Shown one piece after another: positions 37,318 to 53,025 of a DNA stretch of 64,000 nt. This DNA is from Microbacterium sp. zg-Y818 (lineage in GTDB: Bacteria; Actinomycetota; Actinomycetes; Actinomycetales; Microbacteriaceae). The notes beneath the pieces were generated by a model, which was not told where the DNA came from, ran no database searches, and was given only the letters and a program-made list of their open reading frames with translations. The stretch spans positions 2,108,001 through 2,172,000 of the forward strand of contig NZ_CP126741.1 in the NCBI RefSeq assembly GCF_030246905.1, given 5' to 3'. Both the position numbers and the translations under genes were made by a program. Position 1 is the stretch's first letter, and each line of letters begins with the position of its first letter.

Positions 37318-37369
37318 GCTTGTGCCCACTGCGCTCGACCCAGGGTGGGCACCCGCGGCGGCGTGACAC

Positions 37370-40186
37370 TCACACCGTCCGGCGCCGGCGGAGGACGTAC
37401 ATGAGCCCGCCCGCGCAGAGCAGCGCGGCGCTGAGGAGCGCGATGCCCCACGGCGCCTCGGCGCCGGTGATCCCGAGCGCACCCGCGCGCAGCACTGTGA
37501 TGGGCGTGCGGATGTCGGACTCCCCTGCCGCGCTGATGACGAGGGCATGTGCACCGACTGGGAACGACGCCGGGATCGCCACCCGGAACTCGACCCGCCC
37601 CTCCGGGCCCGCCGCAGGCACGTTCCGCACCACCAGCGGATCGCTCTGCACCTCGGCGCCGATCTGCTGTCCCGGGGTGAGCCCGCTGACGCGCACGAGC
37701 AGGGTGCCACCCTGCGCGACCCGGCCGTCGCCCACATCCACGATTGCCCAAGCACCGGCATCCGGATCCGTCGGGTCCGGGGCAGGGACGGTCGGAACCG
37801 GCGTCGGTGCGGGCGTCGGGTCGACGGGCGCGTCCGCCACGGCCGCACTGGGTGCCGAGACCCGGGTCACCGCGATCCGATCGGCCATGCTCGCGCCGAC
37901 GCGCACGGTGAGCGCCGATCCGCGCTGATCCTCGGTGACGACGAAGGTGGCGCCCTGCGCGCCGGCGATGGGAAAACCGTCCGCCAGCCACTGGTAGGTC
38001 AGCGTGGCGGAGTTGTCGCCCGCCACGTCGACCGTCAGTTCACGGCCGATCCATGCGTCGCCGCGCAACTGCGGCTCGCCCAGCTCCGCGCGCTGCGTGG
38101 TCCCGAAGTCCAGCCAGGTGCCGCTCAGTTCGGCATACCCCTGGCTGGGCTTGCTCCAGTCGCACACGCCGTCTGCGAAGACGTTCTGCAGCTCCTGCCA
38201 TTGCTCGTCCGTCAGGACGGGGTAGTCGCCGCGAACAGGAGCGGTGAGCTCGCACTTGAGCACGTCACGCGTGAGCGGCTCCCCTGCCTCGAAGCGCGGG
38301 TCGGAGTGGTACGGGTATAGCTGGTTGCAGGCCTTCGCCGGGTCGGCGTAGTCCAGCGGTTCGGCGATGAACGTACCCGAGGCGTCGAAGCACCCGTCGG
38401 TCAGTCCTGCCGGACGTGCCTCGATGGTGCGTTCCCGCGATTCCTGGCCGCCCCGCGCGATGATGTTGTCGAGCCACTGCTCGAGCTGCGTCAGCGCTTG
38501 CGCGCGCATCGGCCCGGAGCTGGCAGGACTCGAGCCGCTCGTCCAGCTCACGTGGGTGGCCGCGTCGCCGTGCGCCGCCAGCATGCGCTCCCGGATGATG
38601 GCGGACCGGTACCGGTCGTGGAAGTCGCCGGTGAGATCGGCGTAAGGGCGGATCTCGATCACGGGGGTGAAGGCGAGCCCACCGGTCATGGTGTTGACCC
38701 GCCCGGTCTCGAACGCGCGCGTGATCGCCACGATGCTGGCCTCGGAACGGGATGCGGTGCGGGCGCCGTCGATGTCGAAGCCACCCGCGTTCGCGTTCAG
38801 ACTCAGGAACTGGTCGACCGAGATGACGCCGTCCTGAAGCGCCGACAGGCCGTACTGCAGACCCACACCGTCAGGGATGGGGCGGAGTGCCCGCCCCTGC
38901 TCGTCGACGCCGTAGACGTTCTTGACCATGTCCGAGATCGTGCACCGCAGACCGTCCGGATTCGCCGTGGACCAGCGCTCTTCCGCGGGGATGAGGGCGT
39001 TGCAGGCGGCCGGATCGGTGTCGACACCGGTGAACCAGCTGAATCCGACGCAGGTCTGCATCACGGCCTGACCGGTCACCGCCAGCTTCTGCTCGTCGGT
39101 CCAGCCGGCACCCTCGGCCGAAGCCCAGTAGCCCAGCAGGTTGCTGCAGTCGTGTCCGGTCACGGTGGTGGTGCGCTCGTCCGGGTACCCGATCTCCCCC
39201 AAGACACCGTCGATGATGCCGGGGTAGTTGTTCGACAGCAGCAATTGCTGCATCGTGCCGGCCGAGCCGCCCCATCCGATCGTGTACGTGACGGGGCCGA
39301 ACTGTTCGATGACGTGCTCCTTGACCATCATCGCCGTCTCCGCGCTGGTGACGTCGTTGCAGTTCTGCGCGTAGACGTTGAACGTGGCGGATGCCACGGC
39401 ATACCCCCGAGCCAGCAGCTCATCCGTGAGCACCCCGCCCGTGCCGGTGCCCTGCCAGTAGCCGACCCCGCAGGCCCCGCCGAACGTGTAGGCGAGTCTC
39501 CCGTTCCACCCGGACGGCGCGGCGCCCGGCGCCGGCGCAGGCTCGCCGGGCTGGTGCAGCACGGCCGTCTCGTACACGGCCCGGTTGATCGTCCCTCGTT
39601 CCAGTCGGACGACATACGGGACGGTGCGTCCGTCGATCGTCGCGGTGACGAGGTCGCCCGGGACGGTCCCGTCGGCGGGATAGGGCAGGAAGCGACCGTC
39701 CGTCGTGCGGTACTGGTAGCTCACCGTGGGCTCGGCGACATGGCAGTTCTCATCGACCTCGCCGAGGTTCCACGGGGGCGTCGAGGCGGTGCAGTACATC
39801 GGATGCTGGGGGCCCGAGAACACCGGGCCAGTGATCGGGTGGTTCTCCAGCTCGACCGACGCGCGGTCACCACCGGATTCGACCACGACATCGCTCACCC
39901 CCAGCGGGAGCTGCTCGACCAGGCCGATCAGCCCGTCGTCGTGGGGTGCGAAGACACCGGTCACGTCGACGCCCGCAGCGGTTACGCGCACGTCGCCCTG
40001 TGCGGCGCTGATGCGCAGGAGCGCATCGCCACCGGTGACGCTATCGGGCCGGCTCGAGACGACCGAGACGTCCAGCGCGGCATCGCCGACCGCGGCGGTC
40101 GCCGGCAACGGAAGTGCCAGCGAGATGATCAGGCCGGCCAACGCAGCAGCGCAGGCCCCCGGGCGTACGAACGGTCGGTGACTCAT
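37370..40186 (-). CDS. Large secreted, cell-surface alpha/beta-hydrolase-like protein (resembles DUF6351)
   Basis: 938 residues. The Sec signal peptide (ALAGLIISLALPLPATAAVG) is followed by an N-terminal beta domain, a central region with an alpha/beta-hydrolase nucleophile elbow (YTIGWGGSAGTMQQLLL) and eleven or more cysteines that could pair outside the cell, then Ig-like C-terminal domains separated by a Pro/Thr linker, and a final membrane span with RRRR anchor. From memory the central region matches DUF6351, a family related to tannases and feruloyl esterases. A GGAGGA site and a TACTAT -10 box precede the start. It is divergent from a PaaX-type regulator that may control it. Confidence 0.82.
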   Translation of the reverse strand: MSHRPFVRPGACAAALAGLIISLALPLPATAAVGDAALDVSVVSSRPDSVTGGDALLRISAAQGDVRVTAAGVDVTGVFAPHDDGLIGLVEQLPLGVSDVVVESGGDRASVELENHPITGPVFSGPQHPMYCTASTPPWNLGEVDENCHVAEPTVSYQYRTTDGRFLPYPADGTVPGDLVTATIDGRTVPYVVRLERGTINRAVYETAVLHQPGEPAPAPGAAPSGWNGRLAYTFGGACGVGYWQGTGTGGVLTDELLARGYAVASATFNVYAQNCNDVTSAETAMMVKEHVIEQFGPVTYTIGWGGSAGTMQQLLLSNNYPGIIDGVLGEIGYPDERTTTVTGHDCSNLLGYWASAEGAGWTDEQKLAVTGQAVMQTCVGFSWFTGVDTDPAACNALIPAEERWSTANPDGLRCTISDMVKNVYGVDEQGRALRPIPDGVGLQYGLSALQDGVISVDQFLSLNANAGGFDIDGARTASRSEASIVAITRAFETGRVNTMTGGLAFTPVIEIRPYADLTGDFHDRYRSAIIRERMLAAHGDAATHVSWTSGSSPASSGPMRAQALTQLEQWLDNIIARGGQESRERTIEARPAGLTDGCFDASGTFIAEPLDYADPAKACNQLYPYHSDPRFEAGEPLTRDVLKCELTAPVRGDYPVLTDEQWQELQNVFADGVCDWSKPSQGYAELSGTWLDFGTTQRAELGEPQLRGDAWIGRELTVDVAGDNSATLTYQWLADGFPIAGAQGATFVVTEDQRGSALTVRVGASMADRIAVTRVSAPSAAVADAPVDPTPAPTPVPTVPAPDPTDPDAGAWAIVDVGDGRVAQGGTLLVRVSGLTPGQQIGAEVQSDPLVVRNVPAAGPEGRVEFRVAIPASFPVGAHALVISAAGESDIRTPITVLRAGALGITGAEAPWGIALLSAALLCAGGLMYVLRRRRTV

Positions 40187-40283
40187 GTGCGTCCTCCGCT
40201 ATCGACGTCGTCGTCGTCGGGGCCCCGTCGCCCCGTGGCACTGATAGTAGAAAGCTAGGTGACGCGCGTCAATGAGCCGTGAA

Positions 40284-41168
40284 CTATTGAACGGCATCCT
40301 CCTCACCGAGGCGTTGCGGCGTGACGAACGCCGCAAGCGCGTCGTCGACGGCACGCACGTGGTCCCGCATCCGCTCCTCCGCACTCTCGCCGAGGGCGTC
40401 GTACGTGCGGACGAACACGCCCCGTGCGGCGGCGCGGGGCCAGTCAGCCGGCAGAAGCCGGGCGGGATGACCGGGATCGATGTGACGGAACGCCTGCCAG
40501 TCGAGCATCAGGTCGGTGCGCGTCGCGAGGGCCGCTCCCCCGGCTTCGGTGCGCGGCCCGGCGGCGAGGCGGTCGAGGAAGCGCGCGTACTCCTGCCGGA
40601 CGGCCGCGATGCCCCATGCCCGCAGCGGCCCGTCCGTCGACGTCATGGCCAGCGGTGCACGCAGCGACGTGACGTCCAACACGCCCGCGGCGCGCAACTG
40701 AGCGGTCGTGTCCTCGACGGAACCGGTAGGGGAGATCCAGACCCCGTCGTAGAGAGGCGCGTAGCCGGACCACCGCAGGATGGCGCGAGCCCGGTGGCGC
40801 AGCGCGCGCTCGGCCTCGGGGATCGAGAACATCAGCACGCTCCAGCATCCATCCCACTCCGGCTCGATCCTGCCGAACCGGCGCAGCCAGCCGGCCTCCT
40901 CCCGTACGAGCTCCGCCCCGCGAGAAGCGAGCGCATGGCTCGTGCGGCGGCCTGCGCGGGAGACCTCGAGAATGCCGTCCTGCGTCATCCGCACCAGAGC
41001 GGCGCGCGCAGCGGGCTGCTTGACCCCGAGGTCCGCCATCGCCGCCAGGATCGCGCCGGTGGGCAACGGCTTCTTCACGCCCCACCAGTAGTCCCCGAAC
41101 AGCGTCAGCACCTGCAGGACGGGAGACCGACGTCGCACGGATCGGGCGGGCGGGAGCACTTCTGACAC
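40284..41168 (-). CDS. PaaX-family transcriptional regulator
   Basis: About 294 residues from a GTG. The N-terminal winged helix reads VLQVLTLFGDYWWGVKKPLP then LGVKQPAARAALVRMTQDGI, and the PaaX-like domains follow (GYAPLYDGVWISPTGSVED; FVRTYDALGE at the C-terminus). PaaX proteins repress aromatic-catabolic genes and respond to acyl-CoA ligands. The upstream gene on the opposite strand encodes a secreted esterase-like protein, a plausible target if it releases phenolic acids; this is context inference. Confidence 0.85.
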   Translation of the reverse strand: MSEVLPPARSVRRRSPVLQVLTLFGDYWWGVKKPLPTGAILAAMADLGVKQPAARAALVRMTQDGILEVSRAGRRTSHALASRGAELVREEAGWLRRFGRIEPEWDGCWSVLMFSIPEAERALRHRARAILRWSGYAPLYDGVWISPTGSVEDTTAQLRAAGVLDVTSLRAPLAMTSTDGPLRAWGIAAVRQEYARFLDRLAAGPRTEAGGAALATRTDLMLDWQAFRHIDPGHPARLLPADWPRAAARGVFVRTYDALGESAEERMRDHVRAVDDALAAFVTPQRLGEEDAVQ

Positions 41169-41195
41169 GGCCCCATCCTCACATCTGCCGCTTCT

Positions 41196-41657
41196 TCGCG
41201 GAGTACGCGTCCCGCACGCGGGGCCGGCGCCGATCGCGCTCTTCCGCGTCGCGGGTGGATGGGCGCGGGGGCCCGGGCGGGGCTCGTGCTCGGCATCGTC
41301 GTCTCGAGCGTGGTGTTCGCCATCGTCCACCTCTCGAGCGATGTGTGGCTGAACGCCTGGTACCTCGTCTTCGCCGTCGGGCTGTCGCTGATCACCTGGC
41401 GCACGGGTGCCATCGAGATTGCGATCGTGCTGCACACGATGTTCAACACCGTGAACTTCGTGTTCGACGTGGCACTGCGCGTGGACATGGCCACCGCGTA
41501 CGACCGGTCGGCGGGCGTGGCCTCGGTGGAGACGCTGGCGCCGATGGCCGTGATCGTCATCGCCGTCGCGGTGGTGTGGGTGCGCACGCGGGGTGCGGCG
41601 GCGGTGCGGACGCCTGTGGATGCCGAGGCTCGCGCGGAGGCGGTACGGGCGGTCTAG
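41196..41657 (+). pseudogene. 5'-truncated, frameshifted CPBP-protease copy
   Basis: From about 41259 the DNA is nearly identical to positions 57700-58060, including the run SLITWRTGAIEIAIVLHTMF and SVETLAPMAVIVIAVAVVW. Upstream similarity fades within about 60 bp, the catalytic EExxxR segment is destroyed, and a 1-nt deletion shifts the frame near 41265. Only the C-terminal membrane half is readable. This copy and the longer one bracket about 16 kb, so it is either a recombination scar or a decayed duplicate. Confidence 0.8.
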
Positions 41658-41730
41658 GGACGGGGTGCCCGCCGGTCCCCACCGGTGCCGACTCCCGGCT
41701 CCAGGTCGGCCGGGCTCCGTCGCGAGCCGT

Positions 41731-42099
41731 CTACAGTCTCGTCGTGTGCGTGTCGATCCAGTCGACCACTTCGGCGAACTCCAGCCGACCGTCACCCACT
41801 GCCCGAACGAATTCGTCACCATCGCGAACATTCTCGGCAGCCAGATGATGCCCGTTAAGGGCAAGGAACGCCTTCGCGACCAGCCAGGAGAGCCTCTTGT
41901 TCCCGTCCGAGAGAGGATGATCGCGATTGATCGCGATCATCAACGCGGCAGCCTTGTCGTGGAGCGCTGGATAGACCTCTTCGCCAAAGACAGGCAGCGG
42001 CGCGGCAAGTGCTGAGAGCAGAAGATTTCGGTCGCGAAGGTGGAAACCCACCAACTCGATGAGGTCTTCAACGTCGCTGGGCTCGAGGTAATCCGTCAC
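41731..42099 (-). CDS. doc: Doc-like Fic toxin
   Basis: 122 residues (P1 Doc is 126). The Fic motif reads HPLSDGNKR (61-69), with Leu where most Fic proteins have Phe. The N-terminal LEPSDVEDLIELVGFHLRDR and NLLLSALAAPLPVFG segments are typical of death-on-curing proteins, which phosphorylate EF-Tu. The GTG start overlaps the antitoxin stop (GTGA). The pair is a type II toxin-antitoxin module, whose P1 relative is phd-doc. Confidence 0.9.
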   Translation of the reverse strand: MTDYLEPSDVEDLIELVGFHLRDRNLLLSALAAPLPVFGEEVYPALHDKAAALMIAINRDHPLSDGNKRLSWLVAKAFLALNGHHLAAENVRDGDEFVRAVGDGRLEFAEVVDWIDTHTTRL

Positions 42100-42299
42100 T
42101 GCGAAAGTGCGTCCAGCAGGGCAGCGTCCTCGTCGAGGATCCGCTGGAAGATGGCGCGAGTTCGCGCGCTCTTGTCAGCTCTGGCCGCGCGCTCCTCGAT
42201 CGCAAGCTTGACGACTTCTGTCTTGGTGCGCCGCTCCTGAGCGGCGAGCGCGTCGAGGAGTTCCTCGTGCGCCGCGTCGAGACGTAGATTCATCGCCAT
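42096..42299 (-). CDS. Ribbon-helix-helix antitoxin of the Doc module
   Basis: 67 residues from MAMNLRLDAAHEELLDALAA, followed by QERRTKTEVVKLAIEERAAR, a ribbon-helix-helix DNA-binding layout rather than the Phd fold of the P1 system. The C-terminal tail (AIFQRILDEDAALLDALSQ) should be the toxin-wrapping segment. It is the first gene of the module and probably represses it. The ATG two codons downstream is an alternative start. Confidence 0.82.
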   Translation of the reverse strand: MAMNLRLDAAHEELLDALAAQERRTKTEVVKLAIEERAARADKSARTRAIFQRILDEDAALLDALSQ

Positions 42300-42451
42300 G
42301 CGAAAGCCCCTCCCTGAGTACGTGCTTCGACGGTAACACGGAAGGTACCACGCGGTACCATCCGGGCACAGTGCTGCTTGTCTCCCGCCGCAGCGTGAGT
42401 AGGCTGACCCCACCGAGCACTCCCTGACCCCACATCCAAGGTGGTGATGGC

Positions 42452-42724
42452 ATGCCGTACTTCGTCATCGAGCGAACCTTCGACGAACCGGTGGCCCTGC
42501 CCGTGGATGCCGCGGACGACATCAACCTCATCAACGATGAAGAAGATGTGCGGTGGGTGTTCTCCTATCTCTCCCTCGACCGAACCAAGACCTACTGTCT
42601 CTACGAGGCGCCCTCGGCAGAGGCGATCCGCGCCGCCGCCGAGCGGGCCGGCCTCCCTGCGGACAGCGTGATCGAAGTCGCCGGCCGCGTCATGCCCAAT
42701 GGCCACCTCATCGAAGCGGAGTAG
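42452..42724 (+). CDS. DUF4242 protein (SCO4226-like)
   Basis: 90 residues beginning MPYFVIERTFDEPVALP, a DUF4242 signature; SCO4226 of Streptomyces is a nickel-binding member. YLSLDRTKTYCLYEAPSAEA and PADSVIEVAGRVMPNG match the ferredoxin-like barrel of the family. It ends 9 bp from the convergent end of the large regulator gene. Metal binding is inferred from the family only. Confidence 0.82.
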   Translation: MPYFVIERTFDEPVALPVDAADDINLINDEEDVRWVFSYLSLDRTKTYCLYEAPSAEAIRAAAERAGLPADSVIEVAGRVMPNGHLIEAE

Positions 42725-42733
42725 TGCGCACCG

Positions 42734-45628
42734 TCACATCAAGCCCTCATCTCGGGCGTAGCGGACGGCATGGGATCGGTTGGAACTCGAGGTCTTGGTG
42801 AAGATGCTGCGCATGTGGTTGGCCACGGTGTGCTCGCTGATGAACAGCCGGGCGGCGATGTCGCGATTGGTCAGGCCCTGATCGATCAGACGGAGGATCT
42901 CGATCTCGCGGGGGGTCAGCCCGTCGGCGCGACCGCGCAGTCTCGCATCCCGCTCGACCGCGCGCATCACGCGGGCCCAGCCTGCGGCTGTGGCATCCGC
43001 CCACACGCGCTCGGCGAGGACGAGCGCCTCTCGCGACCGGGCATCGCGCGAGACCAGCCAGTGCGCCAAGGCGGTGCGGGTGTGGGCGGCATCCAGCGCC
43101 GCGCCGAGCCGATCGTCCAGCGCCAGCGCAGCGTCGAAAGAGGTCTGCGGGTCGCCGGAATCCAGCAGACCATCGAGCTGTCCGAGGTAACGGTCCGCCG
43201 AGCCGAAGCACGAGACGAAGTAGCCCGACATGAGGTTCAGACCGGCGTACTCCAGGATCAGAGGGCGCAGCCGCGCGGCCGCGTCGCGGTCCTCGAGGAA
43301 CATCGCAGCCTCGGCGAGCAGTGCCAGCACGGCGGGCCACTCCGCGGACTCATGCGCCATGGCGGTGTCCTGATCCAGCAGCCACGCCAGCATCCTCGCC
43401 GCCGGCCGCCTCATCTCGAACTCGGTGTACAGGCCGAGCAGCCCCGGCGCCCAGTGCTCGTGGGGTGATTCGGTTCCGGTGATGATCCCGCGCACCGGCG
43501 CGAGCTGTCCGAGTTCTCGCTTGATCATGTACAGCTGCTGTGCGGCGACGCTGGACCGCGCATCCGACAGGAACGTGGCTTCGGCTCGCGCTGCCCGCCG
43601 GTATGCGGTTCTTGCTGCCCCCAGCCGGCCGGCGATGAAGTGCCGGCCGTAGTCGACGCAGTCGCGCCAGTACTGCCAGTAGCTTCCCGCGCGCGCCGCT
43701 GCCGCGATGAGGGCTGTTTCGGCCTGCTCCAGTCCGCCTTTGTCGCCGAGGACGTACGCTGCGGCGGCCCGATAGTTGGGGGCGGCATACAACCACTCGC
43801 CGATGTCCGCCGGGCTGGTCGCACCCGCGGTGCCGACTGTCCAGATCTCGCCGGCATGGTCGTACGCCTCTCTGAGGATCTGGGGCCGGAGGCTGTGAAG
43901 ATATGCGGTCCGCAGCACCCGCAACAGCAGCTGCGCATCACCGAGCGCGCGAGCCTGCCGAGTGGCCTCTGTCGCCCGCACCCGCGCCTCGTCCAGGCGC
44001 CCCGAAAACGACGTCGCCCGCGCGAGCGCCGCGAGCGCCTCCACCCGTTCCGCGCGAGAACCGGGCTCGGCGGGAAAGTCCAGCGCGCCCATCAGCAGCT
44101 CCACCGCCCGCCCGCCGTGGATGCCCGGCCGCCAGGTCGCTTCTTCGTACTGGATCGCGCCGCGCAGCTGATCGAGCGGGGTACCCAGCGCGCAGACCCG
44201 CTCGGCGAGAGCGCGCGCTCGGGCGAAATCTGCCGCGAGTAGCCAGTTGCGCGCTGCCGCCAGGCGCAGCTCGTCGCGCCCGCTCGGCGACTGGGTCAGG
44301 TCCGCCGCCTGCTCGAACAGTCGCGCCGCCTCTTCGTACGCGATTCTGGATGCCGCGAGCTCCGCCGCCGCGGCCGTGTACGAAACCGCCTCATCCCGGA
44401 ATCCGAGGCTGAGTGCGTGGACGTAGTGGTAGGCGAGCCGCTGCGTCAGCCGGGCGGGGGTGGGCGCACGCTGCTCGAGCATCGCGGCCGCGCGTGCGTG
44501 CAGTGCCGGCCGGTCTCGCGCGGGAATGCCGTCGAGCACCGCCTGCCGCGCGATCGCGTGCGGAAAGCGCAGGTCGTCGCCTGCGCCATGGGGCGCTTCG
44601 AGCAGTCCCGCCGCCAGGGCCCGCTCGAGCGCATCCAGCACGGTCTCGGCCGATTCCCCGGAGATCGCGGCCAACTCGACCACAACAACGTCCATGCCCA
44701 GCACCGCTGCCGCCTCGAGAAGATGGCGCTGCGCGGGATCGATCGTGTCCAGCCTTGTGTACAGCAGATCGTTGACCGACTCGGGCAAGGAGATGCCGAC
44801 GACATCGGGGCCGGCGATGTCGCCGGCATAGCGCCACGCCTCGCGCAGCAGAAAGGGGTTGCCTCCCGTCAGGAACCGCAGTCGCGTTGCCACCTCGAGC
44901 AGGTCTGTGGCGGATGCCGTCGCCCGGGTGCGCACATAGGTGAGCACCTCGTCCAGCGTCAGCGCCCGCAGCGAGATGCGCCGCATTCCTTCGAAGGACG
45001 AGAGGTTCGCCAGGACCCGGTCCACGACCGCTGAGCGATCCGGATGCGTGGACCGCACACCGCCGAGCAGCAGCACCGAGCTGTCTTCGAGTCCGGCGAG
45101 CATCCTGGGCAGCAGCCGCAGCACGGCCTCATCGGCCCAGTGCAGATCGTCCAGGACGATCACGATGGGCCGGCTCTCGGCGGCCTCACTCAGCAGACCG
45201 ACGATCGCCGTCGCCAGCCGGTGCTGATCGCCCGGGTCCCGTGCCTCCGGCCCAGGGTCTGCGCGGTCCGCCGTGATGGCCTGGCGTATCAAGCGGCTGG
45301 CGGCATCCGTCGCCGTCGCCCCCCGGACAAGGTCCAGCAGCCTGCGCAACGGGGCGTCGAGCGGCTCGAACGGCGCACCGAACTCGGCGACGCACGAGCC
45401 TGCGAAGACGGCGGCACCGTGCGCGCTGAGCCGGGTCGCGGCTTCGGCGATGAGCCTGGTCTTGCCGACTCCCGGCTCTCCCGTGACGAAGACGCAGTGC
45501 ACCGACCCGCTCACCACGTCGGGCCACACCGAGACCACGGCATCCAGTTCCTCTTCCCGCGCGACGAACGGCGGCTGATCGGAGCTGCGCCATGCGCGGG
45601 GCAAGAGCGGTGGTTTCCAGGCCCGCAT
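42734..45628 (-). CDS. Large LAL-type ATPase/LuxR regulator of the 45-48 kb cluster
   Basis: 964 residues. Walker A is GEPGVGKT, Walker B is IVLDDLHWADEAVL, the middle is helical-repeat, and the C-terminal LuxR helix-turn-helix has LTPREIEILRLIDQGLTNRD and ISEHTVANHMRSIFTKTSSS. The start MRAWKPP is chosen because TATGTT lies 6 nt upstream (leaderless), and because the longer frame would make the 55-bp promoter repeat coding. It is divergent from three genes of unknown function and is the obvious candidate to control them through the palindrome in that repeat. Confidence 0.88.
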   Translation of the reverse strand: MRAWKPPLLPRAWRSSDQPPFVAREEELDAVVSVWPDVVSGSVHCVFVTGEPGVGKTRLIAEAATRLSAHGAAVFAGSCVAEFGAPFEPLDAPLRRLLDLVRGATATDAASRLIRQAITADRADPGPEARDPGDQHRLATAIVGLLSEAAESRPIVIVLDDLHWADEAVLRLLPRMLAGLEDSSVLLLGGVRSTHPDRSAVVDRVLANLSSFEGMRRISLRALTLDEVLTYVRTRATASATDLLEVATRLRFLTGGNPFLLREAWRYAGDIAGPDVVGISLPESVNDLLYTRLDTIDPAQRHLLEAAAVLGMDVVVVELAAISGESAETVLDALERALAAGLLEAPHGAGDDLRFPHAIARQAVLDGIPARDRPALHARAAAMLEQRAPTPARLTQRLAYHYVHALSLGFRDEAVSYTAAAAELAASRIAYEEAARLFEQAADLTQSPSGRDELRLAAARNWLLAADFARARALAERVCALGTPLDQLRGAIQYEEATWRPGIHGGRAVELLMGALDFPAEPGSRAERVEALAALARATSFSGRLDEARVRATEATRQARALGDAQLLLRVLRTAYLHSLRPQILREAYDHAGEIWTVGTAGATSPADIGEWLYAAPNYRAAAAYVLGDKGGLEQAETALIAAAARAGSYWQYWRDCVDYGRHFIAGRLGAARTAYRRAARAEATFLSDARSSVAAQQLYMIKRELGQLAPVRGIITGTESPHEHWAPGLLGLYTEFEMRRPAARMLAWLLDQDTAMAHESAEWPAVLALLAEAAMFLEDRDAAARLRPLILEYAGLNLMSGYFVSCFGSADRYLGQLDGLLDSGDPQTSFDAALALDDRLGAALDAAHTRTALAHWLVSRDARSREALVLAERVWADATAAGWARVMRAVERDARLRGRADGLTPREIEILRLIDQGLTNRDIAARLFISEHTVANHMRSIFTKTSSSNRSHAVRYARDEGLM

Positions 45629-45692
45629 GCGGCCAACATATGCCCGCCACCGGCTCACGTCGATCCCCGCATCAGCGGTTCGAACGCCACGG

Positions 45693-45747
45693 CGAAATGG
45701 GCATTTCATGTCATGTGGCGGTCAGCCCCTCACGCTTAGCGTCGCCC
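45693..45747 (+). repeat. 55-bp promoter repeat, copy 1
   Basis: Identical to copy 2 (47453-47507) except at one base. It contains the palindrome GAAATG-GG-CATTTC (45694-45707) and a TAGCGT -10 box (45737-45742), with no good -35, so activation by a bound regulator is likely. It lies between the divergent LAL regulator and the 233-residue protein gene. Confidence 0.85.
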
Positions 45748-45790
45748 TTGTCACGGCTGGACGTCAGTCGGACTCAGGAGAGGAAGCATC

Positions 45791-46492
45791 ATGGTCGCCA
45801 CACACGCAACGACGATCACGCCGGAGGCAGCCGGAAGGAAGACCCCCCGACCGTCCGCCGCGCCGCCCACGGAAGCTATCGCCGAGGTGGCCGGAAAGCT
45901 CAAGCAGTGGCGCATCCTGCTGCCGGGCACTGGTGGGCAACTACGCCAGAAGCCGGAATTCGGGGTCCAGCGTGAGCGCAATTTCGCCCTCTACGGCACC
46001 GTCCCCGATCGGTACCTGCAGCACGAAGATCAGGCGTACGGCATCAACCTCGGCTGGACGGACGATGACTCGGCAGCCACCCGGGCCAAGGTGACCCGCT
46101 GGTTCGTGGATCGTCCGGGGTCCGCCGACGGGCCCGTGACCTTCGGCGAGCGCATTGCGCTCGGCAACGGCAAAGATCCGTCGTTCATCCGCTATGCCGA
46201 CCGTTTTGTGGGCGTGAACCTCGACTGGTCGAACAAACCGGTCTACGAATGGCGGTTCGTCGGGGGAACGCCGGGCACGCCGATCAAGGATGGCGCCAGC
46301 GTCGCCATCTACAACGACGAAGCCGGCTCCGACGCCTCGCCGGGCAACTTCCTCATCTACTTCGACCGCACGGTCGGAGGCGACCTGGGATGGCCCGACA
46401 GCAAGACGTGGTGGGACCAGGCGAAATCCAAACTGGGACCCCTCGCATGGGCCGCTGCCAAGGAGTTGCTCAAGGACTACCTCGGGGTGTGA
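45791..46492 (+). CDS. Novel three-repeat protein of the LAL cluster
   Basis: 233 residues with no known family. No signal peptide; a Pro/Thr-rich N-terminal 30 residues precede a body made of three imperfect ~55-residue units, each ending in a similar motif: YGINLGW (83-89), VGVNLDW (140-146), VGGDLGW (195-201). Each unit carries a preceding [FV]..GE or DGAS strand followed by short beta segments, so a threefold beta fold such as a trefoil is possible. An AGGAGAGGAAG ribosome-binding site precedes the ATG. It is probably co-transcribed with the next gene. Confidence 0.75.
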   Translation: MVATHATTITPEAAGRKTPRPSAAPPTEAIAEVAGKLKQWRILLPGTGGQLRQKPEFGVQRERNFALYGTVPDRYLQHEDQAYGINLGWTDDDSAATRAKVTRWFVDRPGSADGPVTFGERIALGNGKDPSFIRYADRFVGVNLDWSNKPVYEWRFVGGTPGTPIKDGASVAIYNDEAGSDASPGNFLIYFDRTVGGDLGWPDSKTWWDQAKSKLGPLAWAAAKELLKDYLGV

Positions 46493-46575
46493 CACCCGAT
46501 CCGACCGCGGTCCCTCGACGACGCTGCTCGTCGAGGGACCCGGCCTCTGCCGATGCCGCAACGAGGGGACTGCTC

Positions 46576-47436
46576 GTGTCCATCAACCCGGAACGCCAGA
46601 CCGTGTGGCAGCGGGCGAAGGGCGTCGTCGTCAGCGCCGGCGCCCTGGCCACCGCCGTGATCGCCGTGGTGGGCGTCTGGAATTGGCTGAGTCCTCGCGA
46701 CGTGCAGGATGCAGCGAGCGTGGAGCTCGCTCTCGTGAGCCGATCCACGCTGCACGAGTATTCGTTCCAGACCCAGCAGGACTTCGACGGGCTCCCGCAA
46801 CATCCCGTCGACGCGGGACTCGCTCTCGTCGTTGCCACACCGCAGCCGGCCGCACCGCCACGACCGTCCGAGACGGCACCACCGACCCCATCGCCCACGC
46901 CGCAGACGGATCAGGACCGCAACACCGTGCCTTCCACGGGCGGCACCATGGCGACCGACCCCCCGGTGGACGCGTATCAACTCACGGAGGAGGAGAAGCG
47001 GGCCTTGGCACTCATCACGAGCGTCGAAGATGTGTCACTCGACGGTCCATCGCCGATGCCGCTGACGAGCGATGAGGTGGAGACATCGCTCGCGGAAGCC
47101 CTGGCTGAGGTGGAGGCGGTGACGACGCAGGACTCCGTAGATCCACTGGGCTACAGAGTGGCCGTCAACTTCGTCTTCGACGGCTTGGCGGGAGTGCCGC
47201 TCGTGCTGACCTGGTCCCTCAACGGCGTGGACGTCAGTGCGAACTGGCGAGCGCCGCGTCTCGGTATCCGTCTTGAGCCGACGACCGACCATGACAGCGG
47301 CAGTGTGGACATCTGGGTCCCCAACCTCAGTTCGCCGGGCGACTACATCGTCGAGGTCAAGATCGTCCGCGCGTCCGGTGGGGCGGCACTGACAAGCGGC
47401 AACCTCCTGGTCACCGCAACAACCACCGGAGAGTAG
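46576..47436 (+). CDS. Membrane-anchored protein with conserved C-terminal domain (paralogue 1)
   Basis: 286 residues from a GTG after GAGGGG. One N-terminal membrane span (VVSAGALATAVIAVVGVW) anchors it with the rest outside. A Pro/Thr linker leads to a C-terminal domain shared with the next gene: DSVDPLGYRVAVNF, GVPLVLTWSLNGVDVSANW, VDIWVPNLSSPGDYIVEV. An STLHE segment near residue 55 is also shared. The domain looks immunoglobulin-like (inference). No repeat promoter lies directly upstream, so it depends on the preceding gene's promoter. Confidence 0.75.
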   Translation: MSINPERQTVWQRAKGVVVSAGALATAVIAVVGVWNWLSPRDVQDAASVELALVSRSTLHEYSFQTQQDFDGLPQHPVDAGLALVVATPQPAAPPRPSETAPPTPSPTPQTDQDRNTVPSTGGTMATDPPVDAYQLTEEEKRALALITSVEDVSLDGPSPMPLTSDEVETSLAEALAEVEAVTTQDSVDPLGYRVAVNFVFDGLAGVPLVLTWSLNGVDVSANWRAPRLGIRLEPTTDHDSGSVDIWVPNLSSPGDYIVEVKIVRASGGAALTSGNLLVTATTTGE

Positions 47437-47452
47437 GCCGCGCCATGCGCGT

Positions 47453-47507
47453 CGAAATGGGCATTTCATGTCATGTGGCGGTCAGCCCCTCACGCCTAGC
47501 GTCGCCC
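47453..47507 (+). repeat. 55-bp promoter repeat, copy 2
   Basis: Second copy of the element at 45693, one mismatch (C for T at 47496). It carries the same GAAATG-GG-CATTTC palindrome and TAGCGT box and ends 35 bp before the lipoprotein start. Confidence 0.85.
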
Positions 47508-47542
47508 GTATCAGGTCACGCTCATTCGAGAGGAAGTGGATC

Positions 47543-48304
47543 GTGTCCATCAACAGCACAATTCCGACTGGACCGCAGCGGAAGAACACACTCGTCATCA
47601 GTGCGGGTATCGCCACCGGAATGATCGCTGTCGTCGGCCTCAGCGGGTGCACGAGCCCCGGCCAGGGGCAGGATGCCGCCGGCGTCGACCTCGCCCTCAC
47701 CGGCGAATCGACACTGCACGAGTTCGACTTTCCGGCGAGAAATGCGTTCAGCGGTCCCCGAAATATCAGGGGCGTGCCGCTGCCGGATCCCATGGCGGCA
47801 ACGCCGAGCGCCGCAGTGTACGACCAGCGCTTGGAACCGTACCGGCTGACGACGGAGGAGGCTATGGCGTTGTCGCCCCTGCCCACGGCCACCGCCCACG
47901 ACATCTCCCCCACGCATCCCCATGACCGGGCGGTGACCACCGGCGCCCTGGCGAGTCATCTCGCGGCGGTCCTGTGGGAGGTCGATGCTGTCGCAGTGAA
48001 TGACTCCGTGGATCCCCTCGGCTACACCGTCACCGTCGATGTCACCACCGACGGCATCGCCGGGGTGCCGCTGCTGGTGACCTGGTCACTCAGCGGTGCG
48101 GATGTCAGCGCCCATTGGGGTGCCAGTCGTCTGGGAGCCCGGCTGCAGCCCACCACCGATGACGGCGCCAGCGTCGACATCTGGATCCCCAACCTCCGTG
48201 GCGATGGTGACTACACCCTCGATGTCGATGTCGTCGGTGCGTCCGACGGCGTTGCTATCGCCGGCGCCAGCTTGCTCGTGGAAGCCGACGCGTCGGCCGA
48301 GTGA
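47543..48304 (+). CDS. Lipoprotein paralogue 2 of the LAL cluster
   Basis: 253 residues from a GTG after GAGAGGAAG. The signal peptide ends in a lipobox (VVGLSGCTSPG), so it is lipid-anchored rather than having paralogue 1's membrane span. The remainder aligns with paralogue 1 along its length: STLHEFDFPARNAF, DSVDPLGYTVTVDV, GVPLLVTWSLSGADVSAHW, VDIWIPNLRGDGDYTLDV. It has its own copy of the 55-bp promoter repeat. Tandem duplication with a change of anchoring mode is the simplest history. Function unknown. Confidence 0.78.
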   Translation: MSINSTIPTGPQRKNTLVISAGIATGMIAVVGLSGCTSPGQGQDAAGVDLALTGESTLHEFDFPARNAFSGPRNIRGVPLPDPMAATPSAAVYDQRLEPYRLTTEEAMALSPLPTATAHDISPTHPHDRAVTTGALASHLAAVLWEVDAVAVNDSVDPLGYTVTVDVTTDGIAGVPLLVTWSLSGADVSAHWGASRLGARLQPTTDDGASVDIWIPNLRGDGDYTLDVDVVGASDGVAIAGASLLVEADASAE

Positions 48305-48316
48305 GCGACTGTGCAG

Positions 48317-48379
48317 CCCCGGTCGTTGAGCGAGCGGGCCTGCGGCCCCGGTCGCGGAGCGAACCCAGCAAGACGAAAC
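48317..48379. repeat. Extragenic GTTGAGCGAG...GACGAAAC repeat
   Basis: CCCCGGTCGTTGAGCGAGCG at the left and AAGACGAAAC at the right, the same family as the elements at 10.9 and 14.2 kb. It lies directly after the lipoprotein gene. Confidence 0.6.
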
Positions 48380-48454
48380 ACACGAGCTGAGTGGGCGTTC
48401 ACACGGCTGGCGGGGCGGTTCGCGGCGGCGGGCGGAGCGCCGCCGGCCGCCTGA

Positions 48455-48730
48455 CGCCTGTCCGAAGACCTCGAACCATTGGATCGCTATGTCGAGGCGC
48501 ACGTCCACGGGGGCGTCACCTTCGCAACGGATGTCGAAGCAATCGTTCTCGACCCCTGTCACCGAGGAACGGCCGTTCATCCGGCAGCGGCGCGCCTTTC
48601 GCAGGTCGACTTCCATCCCGGCTTCAGCGTCAAGACCAGCACGCTCGACCCCGGGTACCGAGGGCCGCGGTACGCAGCCCTCGCGGCATCCGCGCGGTAT
48701 GGGCGGCGCGCGGACGACCAAGCCAGCTAG
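48455..48730 (+). pseudogene. C-terminal remnant of a DUF3626 gene
   Basis: The frame reads LDRYVEAHVHGGVTFATDVE, then AIVLDPCHRGTAVHPAA, VDFHPGFSV and YRGPRYAALAASAR, matching the C-terminal part of DUF3626 proteins, which are normally several hundred residues. There is no start, no ribosome-binding site and no upstream portion, and the last codons are unrelated. Its end overlaps the end of the convergent CPBP gene. Confidence 0.7.
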
Positions 48731-49617
48731 TTGTTCTTCCCCGGCAGGTTGTGAACGGGTGAGGTGGACACGGGTTCTGCCGTCACCTCTGACCGAGGAT
48801 GACCCAATCGTCCGCGCGTCGCGGCAATCGTGATGGCCGCGAGCCCCGCGAGGCCGAGCGCAGCGGGCCAGTTGTTGGCGACCGCCTCACCAGAGAAGGT
48901 GCCTACCGCGAAGAGCGCCCAGTTGATGCCGTTGTGCCCGAGGATCACCAAGAGCACAGAGCCGCGAGATCCGTTGAAGAGCCACGACATGACGAACGAC
49001 ATACTGACCACCAGCACGAGGTACGCCAGAAACTGGCTCGGCTCCTGTCGCGCGGTATCCCATTCGGCAGTCAGAAACAGCGGCGCGTGCCACAAACAGT
49101 GGATGACTCCGAGAGCAAGCGCCGCCGTCATCGGGTGAAGCCGTTGCTGCAGCCGCGGCAGCGCAAAGCCTCGCCAGCCCGGCTCCTCCTGAATCGGACC
49201 CCCGAGCAGGTAGGTCACGTAGGTGATCGCGAGCAACCCCAGCACAGCGATGAAGCCGCCCTCCAGGGCGAAGGACGTTCCGGGCAGCAAGAAGTAGCCG
49301 AGTGCCGTTGCGAGCGGGATGACGAGGAGGGCGAGGAGATACCAGGCCGGCCGGGCGCGCCACTTCACCATGCTCAGCTGGAGTCGCCGCGCCCCCTGGC
49401 GCCCCTCGCAGACGCGGGTGACCAAGAAAGCCGCTGCGAACGGACCCGCAAACAGACCCACTTGGTTGATGCCTGCGATGGCAGCAAAGGGAAGCTGGAA
49501 CGGCAGCAGTCCGATGCCACTCTGCGACAGCCACCACGGGCTCCAGGCCACCCACGAGCCGAGAAAGGCCAGGATGAAGAACGCGGTCAGCGGGCGTCGT
49601 TGAATCAGATCGGTCAT
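48727..49617 (-). CDS. CPBP-family intramembrane metalloprotease
   Basis: 296 residues, about eight membrane spans. The CPBP (Abi) catalytic motifs are intact: EEPGWRG (EExxxR), HCLWHAP and HNGIN. Members are CAAX-protease-like and include bacteriocin self-immunity and stress proteins. It is coupled by ATGA to the upstream PadR-type gene, so PadR probably controls it. It is unrelated in sequence to the CPBP copies at 41.2 and 57.3 kb. Confidence 0.85.
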   Translation of the reverse strand: MTDLIQRRPLTAFFILAFLGSWVAWSPWWLSQSGIGLLPFQLPFAAIAGINQVGLFAGPFAAAFLVTRVCEGRQGARRLQLSMVKWRARPAWYLLALLVIPLATALGYFLLPGTSFALEGGFIAVLGLLAITYVTYLLGGPIQEEPGWRGFALPRLQQRLHPMTAALALGVIHCLWHAPLFLTAEWDTARQEPSQFLAYLVLVVSMSFVMSWLFNGSRGSVLLVILGHNGINWALFAVGTFSGEAVANNWPAALGLAGLAAITIAATRGRLGHPRSEVTAEPVSTSPVHNLPGKNN

Positions 49618-50150
49618 GGCTGTCTTTCGGTGTCGTCGAGCACGGATTGCCAGAAGGCCAGGTCTGCGCGCACGGTCATTCGACCCCACGACAGGACTCG
49701 CTGATGGCTGGGTTGCGCACCGCCCAGACCCGGCTGTTCGAGAAAGTGGAGCGTCTCGGTCAGTTCGCGGATGCGGCTTTGCGCCAGGGAGGTGACGAGG
49801 CTCGGCGCGGCATCCATGAAGAACAGCCGCAGCATCGCGGGATCGCGGTACTGGGAAGGCTCCGGAGTCTCTCCGAGCCACTGCACCAGAGCGCGATGTC
49901 CGTCTTCGGTGATGGTGAAGGTGCGGCGTCGGCGGCCAGTCGACTCCTGCGTCGACGATACGAGACCCAGTCCGACGAGTCGTTGCGGCTCCGCATACAG
50001 CTGGGAGCGGGTCACGTGCCAGAAGAACGACATGGATGCCTCGAAGTTCTGCTCGAGCTCATACGACGTCTGCGGGCCCACCGTCGCCAGCAGGCCGAGA
50101 ACGGTATAGGAAACCGGCCGTAACGGACGGTCCACATCGGACGATGGCAT
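49614..50150 (-). CDS. PadR-family transcriptional regulator
   Basis: 178 residues. The winged-helix region is VSYTVLGLLATVGPQTSYEL and FFWHVTRSQLYAEPQRLVGL, followed by the wing STGRRRRTFTITEDG, and the C-terminal dimerising helices are typical of the longer PadR subfamily. It is the first gene of a two-gene operon with the CPBP protease. PadR-like repressors usually control membrane or exporter genes next to them. Confidence 0.88.
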   Translation of the reverse strand: MPSSDVDRPLRPVSYTVLGLLATVGPQTSYELEQNFEASMSFFWHVTRSQLYAEPQRLVGLGLVSSTQESTGRRRRTFTITEDGHRALVQWLGETPEPSQYRDPAMLRLFFMDAAPSLVTSLAQSRIRELTETLHFLEQPGLGGAQPSHQRVLSWGRMTVRADLAFWQSVLDDTERQP

Positions 50151-50183
50151 CCGGCAACCGTAGCAGCCCAGGTGTCGGCGACG

Positions 50184-51362
50184 CTACGAGACCGGGGCGG
50201 GAGCCGCGGCGCGACGGTCCAGAGCCCGCGTGATGCGCTCGAAGCTCCACAGCCACGCCAGTTCGACCGGTCCGCGCGAGAAGCGCTTCAGCCAGATCCC
50301 CGCTGCGGTGACCACCACAACCACGACCACGACGTAGATCCCGATCGTCGCCGGCACGCGCGCGGCGGGGTCGAGGCGTGCCGCAAGACCCAGCCCCCAG
50401 CCGTAACAGATGGCGGATGCCACAAGATTCTGAAGGACGTACGAACTCAACGCGGTACGCCCGACATCCTGGATGCGTCGACCCACGAAGCCCCGCCCGG
50501 GTCGACGCTCGACGAACTCGACGACGAGAGCGAGGATCCCCAGCGCCACCAGCGGCGCCGTGCCGTATCGGGTGAAGACGAGCCCAGCGATCCCGCCGCC
50601 GAGGCCGATCACCATGTCGGCGACGAACGCGACGCACCCGATGATCATCAGCCTCCGACGCAGTCGATGGCCCGTGGGATCGAGCAGGCCACGCCGAACC
50701 AGCAGTGCGCCCAGCAGGAACATCGCGATGGAGAGGGCGATGATCAGCACCGGCTCGAGCCGGAACACCACCAGGTTCTGCAGCCGGAACACCACGAGGT
50801 CGATCCAGGTTCCGTCGGCATAGGGATTGGGATCAAGTTGGCTGCCCCCGGACGCAACGGGAGCCACCGCGAGCACGACCGTCAGCGCGGTGATCAGCAC
50901 GAGATGCACGGCGGCGGCCGCGATCATCCACGCTCGCTGGGCTCGTTCCGTGGTGGCCAGCAGGTAGGCGACGACGATGCCGGTGACCGCGTACCCCATC
51001 AGCACGTCGAACTCGACGACGAGCACGAAATGCAGGATGCCGTCGATCAAGAGCAACGCGGCCCGCCACGGGTAGCGACCAGGCCAGGCCGCCCCCGCGC
51101 GCACGGCGGAGCGTCGCTGCAACTCGAGCCCGATCCCGAACATGAGTGTGAGCAACCCGAGGAACTTCCCCTGCGCGAACTGCTGGAGAACGGACTCCAC
51201 TGCCCGCCACACGGGCGGCGTGGTGGCAATGGTCGAGCCATTGAGATACCCGATGAACCCCTCTGGATTCGTGAAGATCCAGATGTTGGTTGCCAGTGTT
51301 CCGAGTATCGCGATCCCCCGCAGCAGGTCGAGGGATCCGTAGCGAACAGCGCCTGAGGACAT
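50184..51362 (-). CDS. DUF418 multi-pass membrane protein
   Basis: 392 residues, about ten membrane spans. The N-terminal LDLLRGIAILGTLATNIWIF and C-terminal DVGRTALSSYVLQNLVASAI are DUF418 signatures (acyltransferase-3-like, YeiB group). Function unknown in the family; a role in cell-envelope modification is often assumed. It is divergent from a TetR gene, with a palindromic operator between them. Confidence 0.85.
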   Translation of the reverse strand: MSSGAVRYGSLDLLRGIAILGTLATNIWIFTNPEGFIGYLNGSTIATTPPVWRAVESVLQQFAQGKFLGLLTLMFGIGLELQRRSAVRAGAAWPGRYPWRAALLLIDGILHFVLVVEFDVLMGYAVTGIVVAYLLATTERAQRAWMIAAAAVHLVLITALTVVLAVAPVASGGSQLDPNPYADGTWIDLVVFRLQNLVVFRLEPVLIIALSIAMFLLGALLVRRGLLDPTGHRLRRRLMIIGCVAFVADMVIGLGGGIAGLVFTRYGTAPLVALGILALVVEFVERRPGRGFVGRRIQDVGRTALSSYVLQNLVASAICYGWGLGLAARLDPAARVPATIGIYVVVVVVVVTAAGIWLKRFSRGPVELAWLWSFERITRALDRRAAAPAPVS

Positions 51363-51377
51363 GCGAGCGACCGTACC

Positions 51378-51389
51378 ATACGATCGTAT
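51378..51389. promoter_or_regulatory. Candidate TetR operator
   Basis: ATACGATCGTAT, a perfect 12-bp palindrome in the 59-bp spacer between the divergent DUF418 and TetR genes. TetR proteins typically bind such central palindromes; control of both genes is expected. Confidence 0.65.
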
Positions 51390-51421
51390 TGTTGGGGTGG
51401 TCGCGTGTGTGAGAATGAGCT

Positions 51422-51988
51422 ATGCCGCCCCCGCCGGACCTCCTCGCCGCAGTCACCGCACTGCTCGTTGAGGAAGGCTTCGAGGGCATCAGCGTGCGCA
51501 AGGTCGCCGATCGCGCGGGCGTCTCGATCGGCGCCGTCCAGCACCACTTCCCGACCAAGGCCGCCATGCTCACCGCAGCCATGGATGCCGCCTCCCGGCA
51601 GTTCCGCGACAGACTCGAGCAGCGGGCCGGCCCCGACGCGTCAGCCGAACAGGCGCTGCGCGCGGTCGTGGATGAGCTGCTGGGGATGGGCCCGGAACGA
51701 CGAGCGGCTAGTGTGCTCTGGGTGGCCCGACTGGCACGATCCGCCATCGATCCCTCGTTTGCGGCCGCGCACGCCGCAGAGTGGCAGCAGGTGGAGGACC
51801 TCCTGGTCTGGCTCATCCAGCAGTGTCTGCCCCACCGCGACCCCGCATGGGCGCGCGACGAGGCAGCCACCCTTCTCGCCGTCATCGACGGTCTTGCGAC
51901 GGCCGCTCTCGTGGAGCCCCAGCGCATGCCCCCCGCCCGCGCGAGCGCGCTCATCGATGCGGTTCTTGCGCGACTTCTCGCCGGTTAG
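51422..51988 (+). CDS. TetR-family repressor
   Basis: 188 residues. The helix-turn-helix reads EEGFEGISVRKVADRAGVSI then GAVQHHFPTKAAMLTAAMD; the C-terminal domain is the TetR_C type with an aromatic/Leu-rich pocket. It is divergent from the DUF418 gene across a 12-bp palindrome, its likely target. GAGAAT lies 5 nt before the ATG with no ribosome-binding site. Confidence 0.88.
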   Translation: MPPPPDLLAAVTALLVEEGFEGISVRKVADRAGVSIGAVQHHFPTKAAMLTAAMDAASRQFRDRLEQRAGPDASAEQALRAVVDELLGMGPERRAASVLWVARLARSAIDPSFAAAHAAEWQQVEDLLVWLIQQCLPHRDPAWARDEAATLLAVIDGLATAALVEPQRMPPARASALIDAVLARLLAG

Positions 51989-52122
51989 GCCACGGGGCGC
52001 GGATCCGGGGCGGCGGCGTTCGCCCGACTGGCGCGGCGGTCTGCGGCCGCCGGCCGGTGACGGGCTCCCGTCCAGCTGACGAGAGCCCGCCCCAGGATGC
52101 GTGCGCGTCCGGTGCGCCCCCG

Positions 52123-53025
52123 TCAGTAGCCGACGGCGGCGAGCCCGGCGTTGGCCTGGTCCGGCGTGAAGCCGGAACCGTGCTCGCTGGTCAGCTGCTC
52201 GAACAGCCCATCGCGACTGAACGCCATCGCGTCCAGGTACGACTGAGCCGCCTCGGCCGCCTCGGCGTTCCAATCGACACGCCCAGACTGTTCGAGCGTG
52301 GCCACGGCGAACTCGGCATCCTCAGCCGCGAACCCGGAACCGTACTCGCTGCTCAGCTGCTGAATGAGCCCGGCGCGGCTGAACGGCATGACGTCGAGGT
52401 ACTGTTCGGCGTTGCGGATCGCGTTCTCCTGCGCGAGGGTCAACTTCGGCTTCTCCTGAAGCGTCAGCCGCACGGTGGACCCTTCTTCGGCCTGCGCGCC
52501 TGCGGCGACATCCTGTGTGGTGACCGGCATGGTGACGTCACCGCCAGCGACGTCGACCTGCAGGCCCACCGACGAAAGCGCCGCCTGAGCGTCCGCACCG
52601 GTCAGCCCCACGACGTTCGGGACGTCGACCATGACCGGCTCGACCTCTTCCTCGGCCTCGTCCTCGGTCCCTGTCGAGGGGGTCTGCGATGCGAGGGGCT
52701 TCTCAGCCGCGATGTCGTCGCCGCCACCGCCCAATGCGCCACCGATGCCGGAAACCACGATGATGCCACCGACAATGGCGACCGGGATGACGATGCCCTT
52801 GCGCTTGAACCACGGGCGTTTCGAGGCGTTCGCGGGCGCCACCGGCGCGGAGACCGCATCGGCGTGCGGGGCGGTGGGGGCTGCGGCGACCGTCCCCGGC
52901 GCTGAGATCGGGCGGACGTGCTCTGTCCAGGCGGTGCCGTCGTACCAGCGCTCAGTACCCGGCGCCTTGACATCGGCGTACCAGCCCGCTGCGAACGTAG
53001 GGCGGCCGTCATCGGAAGTAGTCAT
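52123..53025 (-). CDS. DUF2510-TM-PASTA-Ltp surface protein
   Basis: 300 residues in four parts. An N-terminal DUF2510 motif (GWYADVKAPGTERWYDGTAW) is cytoplasmic; one membrane span follows near 75-95; then a PASTA-like domain (VDVPNVVGLTGADAQAALSS); and at the C-terminus two Ltp repeats (YLDVMPFSRAGLIQQLSSEY, YLDAMAFSRDGLFEQLTSEH). Ltp repeats are known from a phage lipoprotein that blocks DNA injection by related phages. PASTA domains bind cell-wall fragments. A surface protein that senses or shields the wall is inferred; superinfection exclusion is possible but untested. Confidence 0.85.
   Translation of the reverse strand: MTTSDDGRPTFAAGWYADVKAPGTERWYDGTAWTEHVRPISAPGTVAAAPTAPHADAVSAPVAPANASKRPWFKRKGIVIPVAIVGGIIVVSGIGGALGGGGDDIAAEKPLASQTPSTGTEDEAEEEVEPVMVDVPNVVGLTGADAQAALSSVGLQVDVAGGDVTMPVTTQDVAAGAQAEEGSTVRLTLQEKPKLTLAQENAIRNAEQYLDVMPFSRAGLIQQLSSEYGSGFAAEDAEFAVATLEQSGRVDWNAEAAEAAQSYLDAMAFSRDGLFEQLTSEHGSGFTPDQANAGLAAVGY

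What the first reader, a model, noticed from the sequence alone, without database searches (positions are those of the whole stretch)
42734..48304. LAL regulator facing a duplicated promoter and three unknown surface or repeat proteins
A 964-residue LuxR-type ATPase is divergent from a three-repeat protein, and two tandem paralogues follow, one with a membrane span and one a lipoprotein. The same 55-bp element (one mismatch) precedes the first and third genes and holds the palindrome GAAATG-GG-CATTTC plus a TAGCGT box without a -35. Seen directly: the repeat, the paralogy and the anchors. Inferred: the regulator binds the palindrome and switches on a dedicated envelope-located system. I know of no described system with this layout.
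Basis: partly seen in the sequence, partly recalled or inferred. Interest (0 to 1): 0.72.

Follow-up and report, generated by a model that had tools for sequence, protein, structure and literature searches.

The report
Local LuxR-regulated envelope protein locus
A large LuxR-type switch gene faces a short conserved DNA signal that sits, copied twice, in front of poorly known membrane-anchored proteins; comparison with related bacteria supports the switch and its signal as a small unit, but what the proteins do is still a guess.

Summary
In detail: a 964-residue LAL regulator, a three-repeat protein (P1), two paralogues (P2 with a membrane span, P3 with a lipobox; 43% identical) and a 55-bp element with one mismatch, 1760 bp apart. 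Comparison supports half of the interpretation. The LAL orthologue (3 of 295 genomes), the exact palindrome 16-mer (3 of 295) and the P2/P3 family (3 of 366) fall in the same three Microbacterium genomes. Window and G089 share a 26-bp core, 26 of 26 identical, against 89 of 141 elsewhere in the intergenic; spacings are fixed. LAL, palindrome and one anchored Ig-like protein thus form a unit, probably a local activator circuit. P1 is not in the core: 1 of 295 genus genomes, no LAL near six relatives elsewhere, no export signal seen. P1 is predicted to be a beta-trefoil of the RyR/IP3R/MIR type. Binding, sign of control, inducer and function are untested.

The parts
42452..42724 (+). SCO4226-like (DUF4242) small protein, tail to tail with the LAL
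   Evidence: PF14026 E 1.7e-20; orthologue beside the LAL in G089 (84%) and G317 (99%), and beside the 44% LAL of G132 (65%)
42734..45628 (-). LAL regulator, 964 aa
   Evidence: AAA_16 and GerE domains; orthologues in G089 (75%) and G317 (about 95% in three pieces; broken by frameshifts as sequenced)
42755..42922 (-). LuxR-type HTH of the LAL
   Evidence: PF00196 match at residues 902-957 of the 963-residue query 45625-42734
45690..45753 (+). promoter element, copy 1
   Evidence: 60 of 64 identical to copy 2
45694..45707 (.). palindrome GAAATG-GG-CATTTC, copy 1, 65 nt from the LAL start codon
   Evidence: exact 16-mer in 3 of 295 genus genomes, all with the LAL orthologue; same 65-nt gap in the three divergent loci
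45737..45742 (+). TAGCGT, probable -10 box
   Evidence: first base 36.5 bp from the palindrome centre in 4 of 4 copies
45791..46492 (+). P1, predicted beta-trefoil protein without visible export signal
46576..47436 (+). P2, single N-terminal membrane span plus C-terminal domain shared with P3
   Evidence: paralogy; hydrophobic span; fold taken from the P3 model
47450..47513 (+). promoter element, copy 2
47454..47467 (.). palindrome, copy 2
47497..47502 (+). TAGCGT, probable -10 box, copy 2
47543..48304 (+). P3, predicted lipoprotein (Cys36) plus Ig-like C-terminal domain
   Evidence: lipobox LSGC read from the translation; sandwich over residues 149-246, pLDDT 71-83 by blocks of ten in a model of mean 56

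Best explanation
A local, probably self-contained activator circuit. The LAL, a MalT-like ATPase switch, answers an unknown signal and binds GAAATG-GG-CATTTC, perhaps with the conserved CATGTCATGT next to it, about 49 bp upstream of the predicted start of a promoter that has a TANNNT -10 and no recognisable -35. It thereby switches on the divergent gene(s), and may control its own gene from the same site. Its conserved output is an Ig-like domain held on the outside of the cell membrane by a span (as in P2) or a lipid (as in P3). In this strain the output has grown: gene and promoter are duplicated, so two copies of the operator drive P1-P2 and P3, and a patchily distributed beta-trefoil protein (P1) sits in the first slot. 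Shown: the anatomy, conservation, exact spacing, co-occurrence and near-absence of the site elsewhere in the genome. Inferred: binding, activation, autoregulation, membrane topology and a ligand-binding or adhesive role of the products.
For: LAL orthologue (75% or more), exact palindrome 16-mer and P2/P3 family in the same three genomes. 26-bp core fully identical between window and G089, rest 89 of 141; a run of 26 or more arose in 55 of 200000 simulations with independent columns at 63% identity. Palindrome-to-TAGCGT distance identical in 4 of 4 copies; palindrome-to-LAL-start 65 nt in 3 of 3 divergent loci. In the genome no further site within 1 mismatch, two more at 2 mismatches. Between the window stretch 36000-56000 and the G089 stretch the shared DNA is limited to LAL, SCO4226-like gene, intergenic and the P2/P3-family gene. 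Palindromic sites, its own promoter included, are footprinted for another LAL, SCO6993, a repressor (PMC9628970, passages seen); a LAL acts as activator in Rhodococcus (TpdR, PMC6099782, passages seen).
Against: No binding or expression data. LAL sites in the passages seen vary (palindromes for SCO6993, direct repeats for MalT and proposed for TpdR), so the palindrome cannot be assigned by sequence; the conserved core also holds short direct repeats. The 44% LAL of G132 has a closely similar recognition helix, but the 16-mer is not found in G132 within one mismatch. Three genomes, two of them close, are few independent cases. In G317 the regulator is broken by two small frameshifts as sequenced, although the palindrome and the P3-type gene are kept. 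The lack of a consensus -35 is close to what shuffles give. The P3 model is weak overall (mean pLDDT 56).
Confidence: 0.6

Rival explanations
1. The conserved core is the operator of a different regulator, or the LAL represses rather than activates; the divergent LAL is only linked to it.
For: The G132 LAL has a closely similar recognition helix without this palindrome. SCO6993, a LAL, is a repressor that binds palindromes (PMC9628970). G317 keeps site and gene although its LAL is broken as sequenced.
Against: The exact site occurs only where this LAL orthologue occurs (3 of 295) and, within one mismatch, nowhere else in the genome, which does not fit a regulator with a distant regulon of its own.
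Confidence: 0.25
2. The repeated element has no shared function: it is a by-product of the tandem duplication of P2/P3, too young to have diverged.
For: P2 and P3 are paralogues and the repeat extends beyond the palindrome. G317 looks as if the piece between the two repeats had been lost or had never been gained.
Against: P2 and P3 have diverged to 43% identity while the elements are 60 of 64 identical; the core is unchanged in G089, whose LAL is 75% identical. Recent gene conversion between the copies could explain the first point but not the second.
Confidence: 0.1
3. P1 is a foreign gene (or P1-P2 an acquired cassette) that landed at the promoter of an older LAL-anchored-protein pair and is unrelated to it in function. 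This is compatible with the best explanation for the regulatory part.
For: P1 is in 1 of 295 genus genomes while relatives are scattered over named genomes of several actinobacterial genera and of Siccirubricoccus and Dankookia. Relatives of P1 (P0002) and of P2 (P0086) were each reported on a contig of exactly 5752 bases from the same source, perhaps one contig, so P1-P2 linkage may be older than this strain.
Against: P2 belongs to the same family as the single genes behind the palindrome in G089 and G317, so P2 does not look foreign; P1 may.
Confidence: 0.3

Closest known systems
LAL regulators of actinobacteria (MalT type; SCO6993 and TpdR as described cases)
   Same: N-terminal AAA_16 ATPase, C-terminal LuxR HTH; palindromic sites and self-binding in SCO6993 (PMC9628970, passages); activator of a catabolic operon in TpdR (PMC6099782, passages).
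   Different: Those cases control antibiotic or catabolic genes; here the output is unnamed, probably envelope-located proteins and the operator is copied in front of two transcription units.
SCO4226 nickel-binding protein family (PF14026)
   Same: The neighbour at 42452-42724 matches over the full model.
   Different: The SCO4226 paper does not mention LuxR regulators in its main text (term count 0, PMC4186839, passages); the link to a LAL seen here is genomic only. Metal binding was not tested.
Beta-trefoil N-terminal/MIR domains (RyR, IP3R, Pmt4, SDF2)
   Different: No trefoil family among the Pfam hits of 27 members except PF08709 in one at E 0.15; no PDB chain matched by the profile; 7-16% identity; bacterial; free-standing.
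Ig/FnIII-like domains of GH2 enzymes and of RbmA

Membership tests
LAL (large ATP-binding LuxR) regulators | N-terminal ATPase with Walker A | tested here: met
   AAA_16 E 1e-28; GEPGVGKT in the translation
LAL (large ATP-binding LuxR) regulators | C-terminal LuxR/GerE HTH and a length near 900 aa | tested here: met
   GerE E 1e-16, 964 aa; the size rule is recalled
LAL (large ATP-binding LuxR) regulators | ATP- and inducer-dependent DNA binding | not testable with these tools
   needs purified protein
SCO4226-like (PF14026) | match above the curated cut-off | tested here: met
   73.4 bits against 28.5
SCO4226-like (PF14026) | nickel binding | not testable with these tools
   biochemical
MIR / RyR-IP3R trefoil family (P1) | beta-trefoil fold | tested here: met
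   predicted model and VIA-align; a prediction, not a structure; Foldseek alone had no match at E 0.001
MIR / RyR-IP3R trefoil family (P1) | sequence match to the family models | tested here: not met
   27 members scanned: the only related hit is PF08709 in 1 of 27 at E 0.15; P1 itself 0 families at E up to 1
Bacterial lipoprotein (P3) | signal peptide and lipobox ending in Cys | tested here: met
   read from the sequence, LSGC at residues 33-36, hydrophobic stretch 16-33; no dedicated predictor run
RbmA-type FnIII scaffold proteins (P2/P3) | FnIII fold and sequence match | tested here: inconclusive
Known anti-phage defence systems | PADLOC model match for P1, P2 or P3 | tested here: not met
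   0 families for P1-P3 at E 0.01; the LAL matches two CARF-named models, but only over its HTH region, residues 883-947

The most novel reading that the evidence does not exclude
An undescribed actinobacterial signalling unit: a SCO4226-like small protein and a LAL as sensor and switch, one palindrome type as a private operator, and an exchangeable set of membrane-anchored Ig-like proteins with, here, a trefoil protein as a plug-in output. The operator is copied along with each new output gene, so the unit grows by duplication.
Probability: 0.3. Interest if true: 0.55.

Novelty: new member of a known kind. Interest (0 to 1): 0.36.

Why it matters
It gives a testable operator for a LAL, a regulator class whose binding sites and signals are poorly known (own knowledge, and the SCO6993 passages), and hands over two unnamed protein families: a scattered bacterial trefoil family and a rare membrane-anchored Ig-like family. 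The neighbourhood of some LAL regulators and SCO4226-like proteins may point to a partner for these switches. None of this overturns known biology.

Tried and rejected
Defence system: PADLOC gives nothing for P1-P3. Mobile element: P1 has no tblastn match at E 1e-3 in 72,556 plasmid or 50,697 phage records. Of the window stretch 36000-56000, the pieces that match G317 are 91-95% identical (plus weak matches between the paralogues), but about 37356-41240 and 48692-53218 have no match in the G317 stretch, so local gains and losses are common here. P1 surroundings elsewhere (L006-L010): no shared partner seen in a rough ORF listing. The Amycolatopsis neighbour with a weak CARDB match (below cut-off) is unlike the P2/P3 profile (hhalign probability 0.1%). 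L011 (Variovorax, 29% over 72 residues) was not followed. G281, which has the 16-mer with one mismatch, shows only a LuxR HTH of another regulator 7 kb away and no LAL, P1, P2 or P3; treated as chance. G018: the P3 hit (E 6.7e-4) is gone with the A2 profile, and its stretch gave no LAL, P2 or P3 hit. The weak A3 hits in G050 and G629 were not inspected. P0089-P0092 were seen as sequences only. A P2/P3 tree of 14 rows puts the five lipobox rows on one side of one branch (100/100), which fits one change of anchor; but the G089 protein, which has a P2-like anchor, groups weakly with the lipobox rows (83/79) and not with P2, and long outgroup branches leave the root unsure. The first scan of genome contigs with P1 alone found nothing. 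Papers: seven searches of the held open-access library; among the rows listed none describes this layout by its title or abstract start (one search listed 15 of 80, 8 of 28, 8 of 236). Only passages of three papers were read.
Full report
WHAT IS THERE. The window lies in a 3.23-Mb single-contig genome. The genus is taken as Microbacterium because its genus mate G089 has a 3,409,839-base contig, the same length as the longest contig given for P0085, a protein named from unclassified Microbacterium and identical in letters to the G089 frame. The LAL gene runs 45628-42734 on the minus strand, 964 aa, with AAA_16 and GerE domains. P1, P2 and P3 follow on the plus strand. None of the three has a Pfam match at E up to 1; NCBIfam gives one match each for P2 and P3, far below cut-off, and none for P1. 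P2 and P3 are 43% identical. The repeated element is real: 60 of 64 bases, with one difference in the 55 bp 45693-45747.

THE SITE. By itself the palindrome is unremarkable: a 6-bp-arm inverted repeat appears in 30% of 500 shuffles of the intergenic. Its distribution is what counts. The genome has two exact copies, no other site within one mismatch and two more at two mismatches. Over 295 genus genomes the 16-mer GAAATGGGCATTTCAT is found exactly in three (G000 twice, G089, G317), and with one mismatch in G281. The LAL at E 1e-200 or better is found in four of 295: the same three (100%; G089 75%; G317 95%, counted over residues 1-484) and G132 at 44%. The P2/P3 profile hits the same three of 366; the single P3 sequence had also touched G018 weakly (4 of 295). 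Aligned intergenics of window and G089 share a run of 26 identical bases over palindrome plus CATGTCATGTGG, while the other 141 columns hold 89 identities. The TAGCGT box starts 36.5 bp from the palindrome centre in all four copies, and the palindrome starts 65 nt from the LAL start codon in all three divergent loci. With TAGCGT read as a -10 box (TANNNT, recalled), the palindrome centre falls near -49, a place where an activator can help polymerase at a promoter without a -35. No consensus promoter was found, but about none was expected.

THE OUTPUT CHANGES, THE SWITCH STAYS. In G317 the palindrome is followed directly by a P3-type gene (89%), in G089 directly by a gene whose product has a P2-like span and no lipobox Cys (46% to P2 over its length, 48% to P3 over 208 columns); neither genome has P1. 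In a tree of 14 rows the five lipobox rows form one side of one branch (100/100); the G089 row joins them weakly (83/79), so 'P2-like' describes the anchor, not descent. The core is thus LAL, operator and one anchored Ig-like protein; the window's strain shows two family genes and two operators, plus P1. Whether G317 lost the P1-P2 piece by recombination between the two elements or never had it cannot be told. Its LAL frame stops after 538 aa counted from an upstream ATG and is interrupted by two small frameshifts as sequenced: real decay or assembly error.

THE NEIGHBOUR. The gene at 42452-42724 is SCO4226-like. This family is rare in the genus, 6 of 99 genomes. It lies tail to tail with the LAL in G000, G089 and G317, and with the 44% LAL of G132. 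Of 9 gene copies whose surroundings I looked at, 6 have a LAL-like gene alongside and 3 (G028 C1, G064, G004) do not; a second copy in G132 was not looked at. This count is biased, because G317 and G132 were looked at for their LAL: in the 99-genome draw alone it is 4 of 7 copies, and without the orthologous loci G000 and G089 2 of 5. Still, the small protein is a better candidate for a functional partner of the regulator than P1.

HOW IT MOST LIKELY WORKS. See the best explanation. Shown here: anatomy, conservation, spacing, co-occurrence. Inferred: binding, sign of control, topology, function. SCO6993 shows that a LAL can bind palindromes, its own promoter included, as a repressor (PMC9628970, passages); TpdR shows activation by a LAL (PMC6099782, passages). 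The G132 LAL, with a similar recognition helix but no such palindrome, and the broken LAL of G317, count against a simple story.

VERDICT. The system is a new, small, local member of a known kind of regulation, with unnamed products. It is of moderate interest.

Noticed in passing
window 42452-42724 and LAL 42734-45628: SCO4226-like gene, rare in the genus (6 of 99 genomes), lies beside a LAL-like gene in 6 of 9 copies looked at, 4 of 7 in the unbiased draw.
   Followed up: partly
L019 9014-11905 (G317): LAL orthologue interrupted by two small frameshifts with stops in the stretch between them; the pieces are 95-96% identical to the window's protein.
   Followed up: partly
window 41731-42301: Fic/Doc-family gene (PF02661) directly downstream of a small same-strand gene (about 42101-42301) that looks like an antitoxin; the second label is by eye, from no call.
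   Followed up: no
window 37370-40186: 938-aa tannase-like DUF6351 protein (PF19878, E 5.5e-216).
   Followed up: no
window 52123-53025: Protein with DUF2510, PASTA and Ltp lipoprotein repeats.
   Followed up: no
window 48727-50150: Rce1-like CPBP membrane protease frame next to a PadR regulator frame on the same strand; the region is not matched in the G317 stretch.
   Followed up: no
L034 8251-8268 (G132): The 44% LAL of G132 has its own short inverted repeat, ATGGTCA-ATCC-TGACCAT, just upstream of its start; seen by eye in the printed sequence, place.
   Followed up: no
window 45702-45716 and 47462-47476: The conserved core continues from the palindrome as CATTT-CATGT-CATGT, three 5-bp direct repeats, kept in all four copies.
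   Followed up: no
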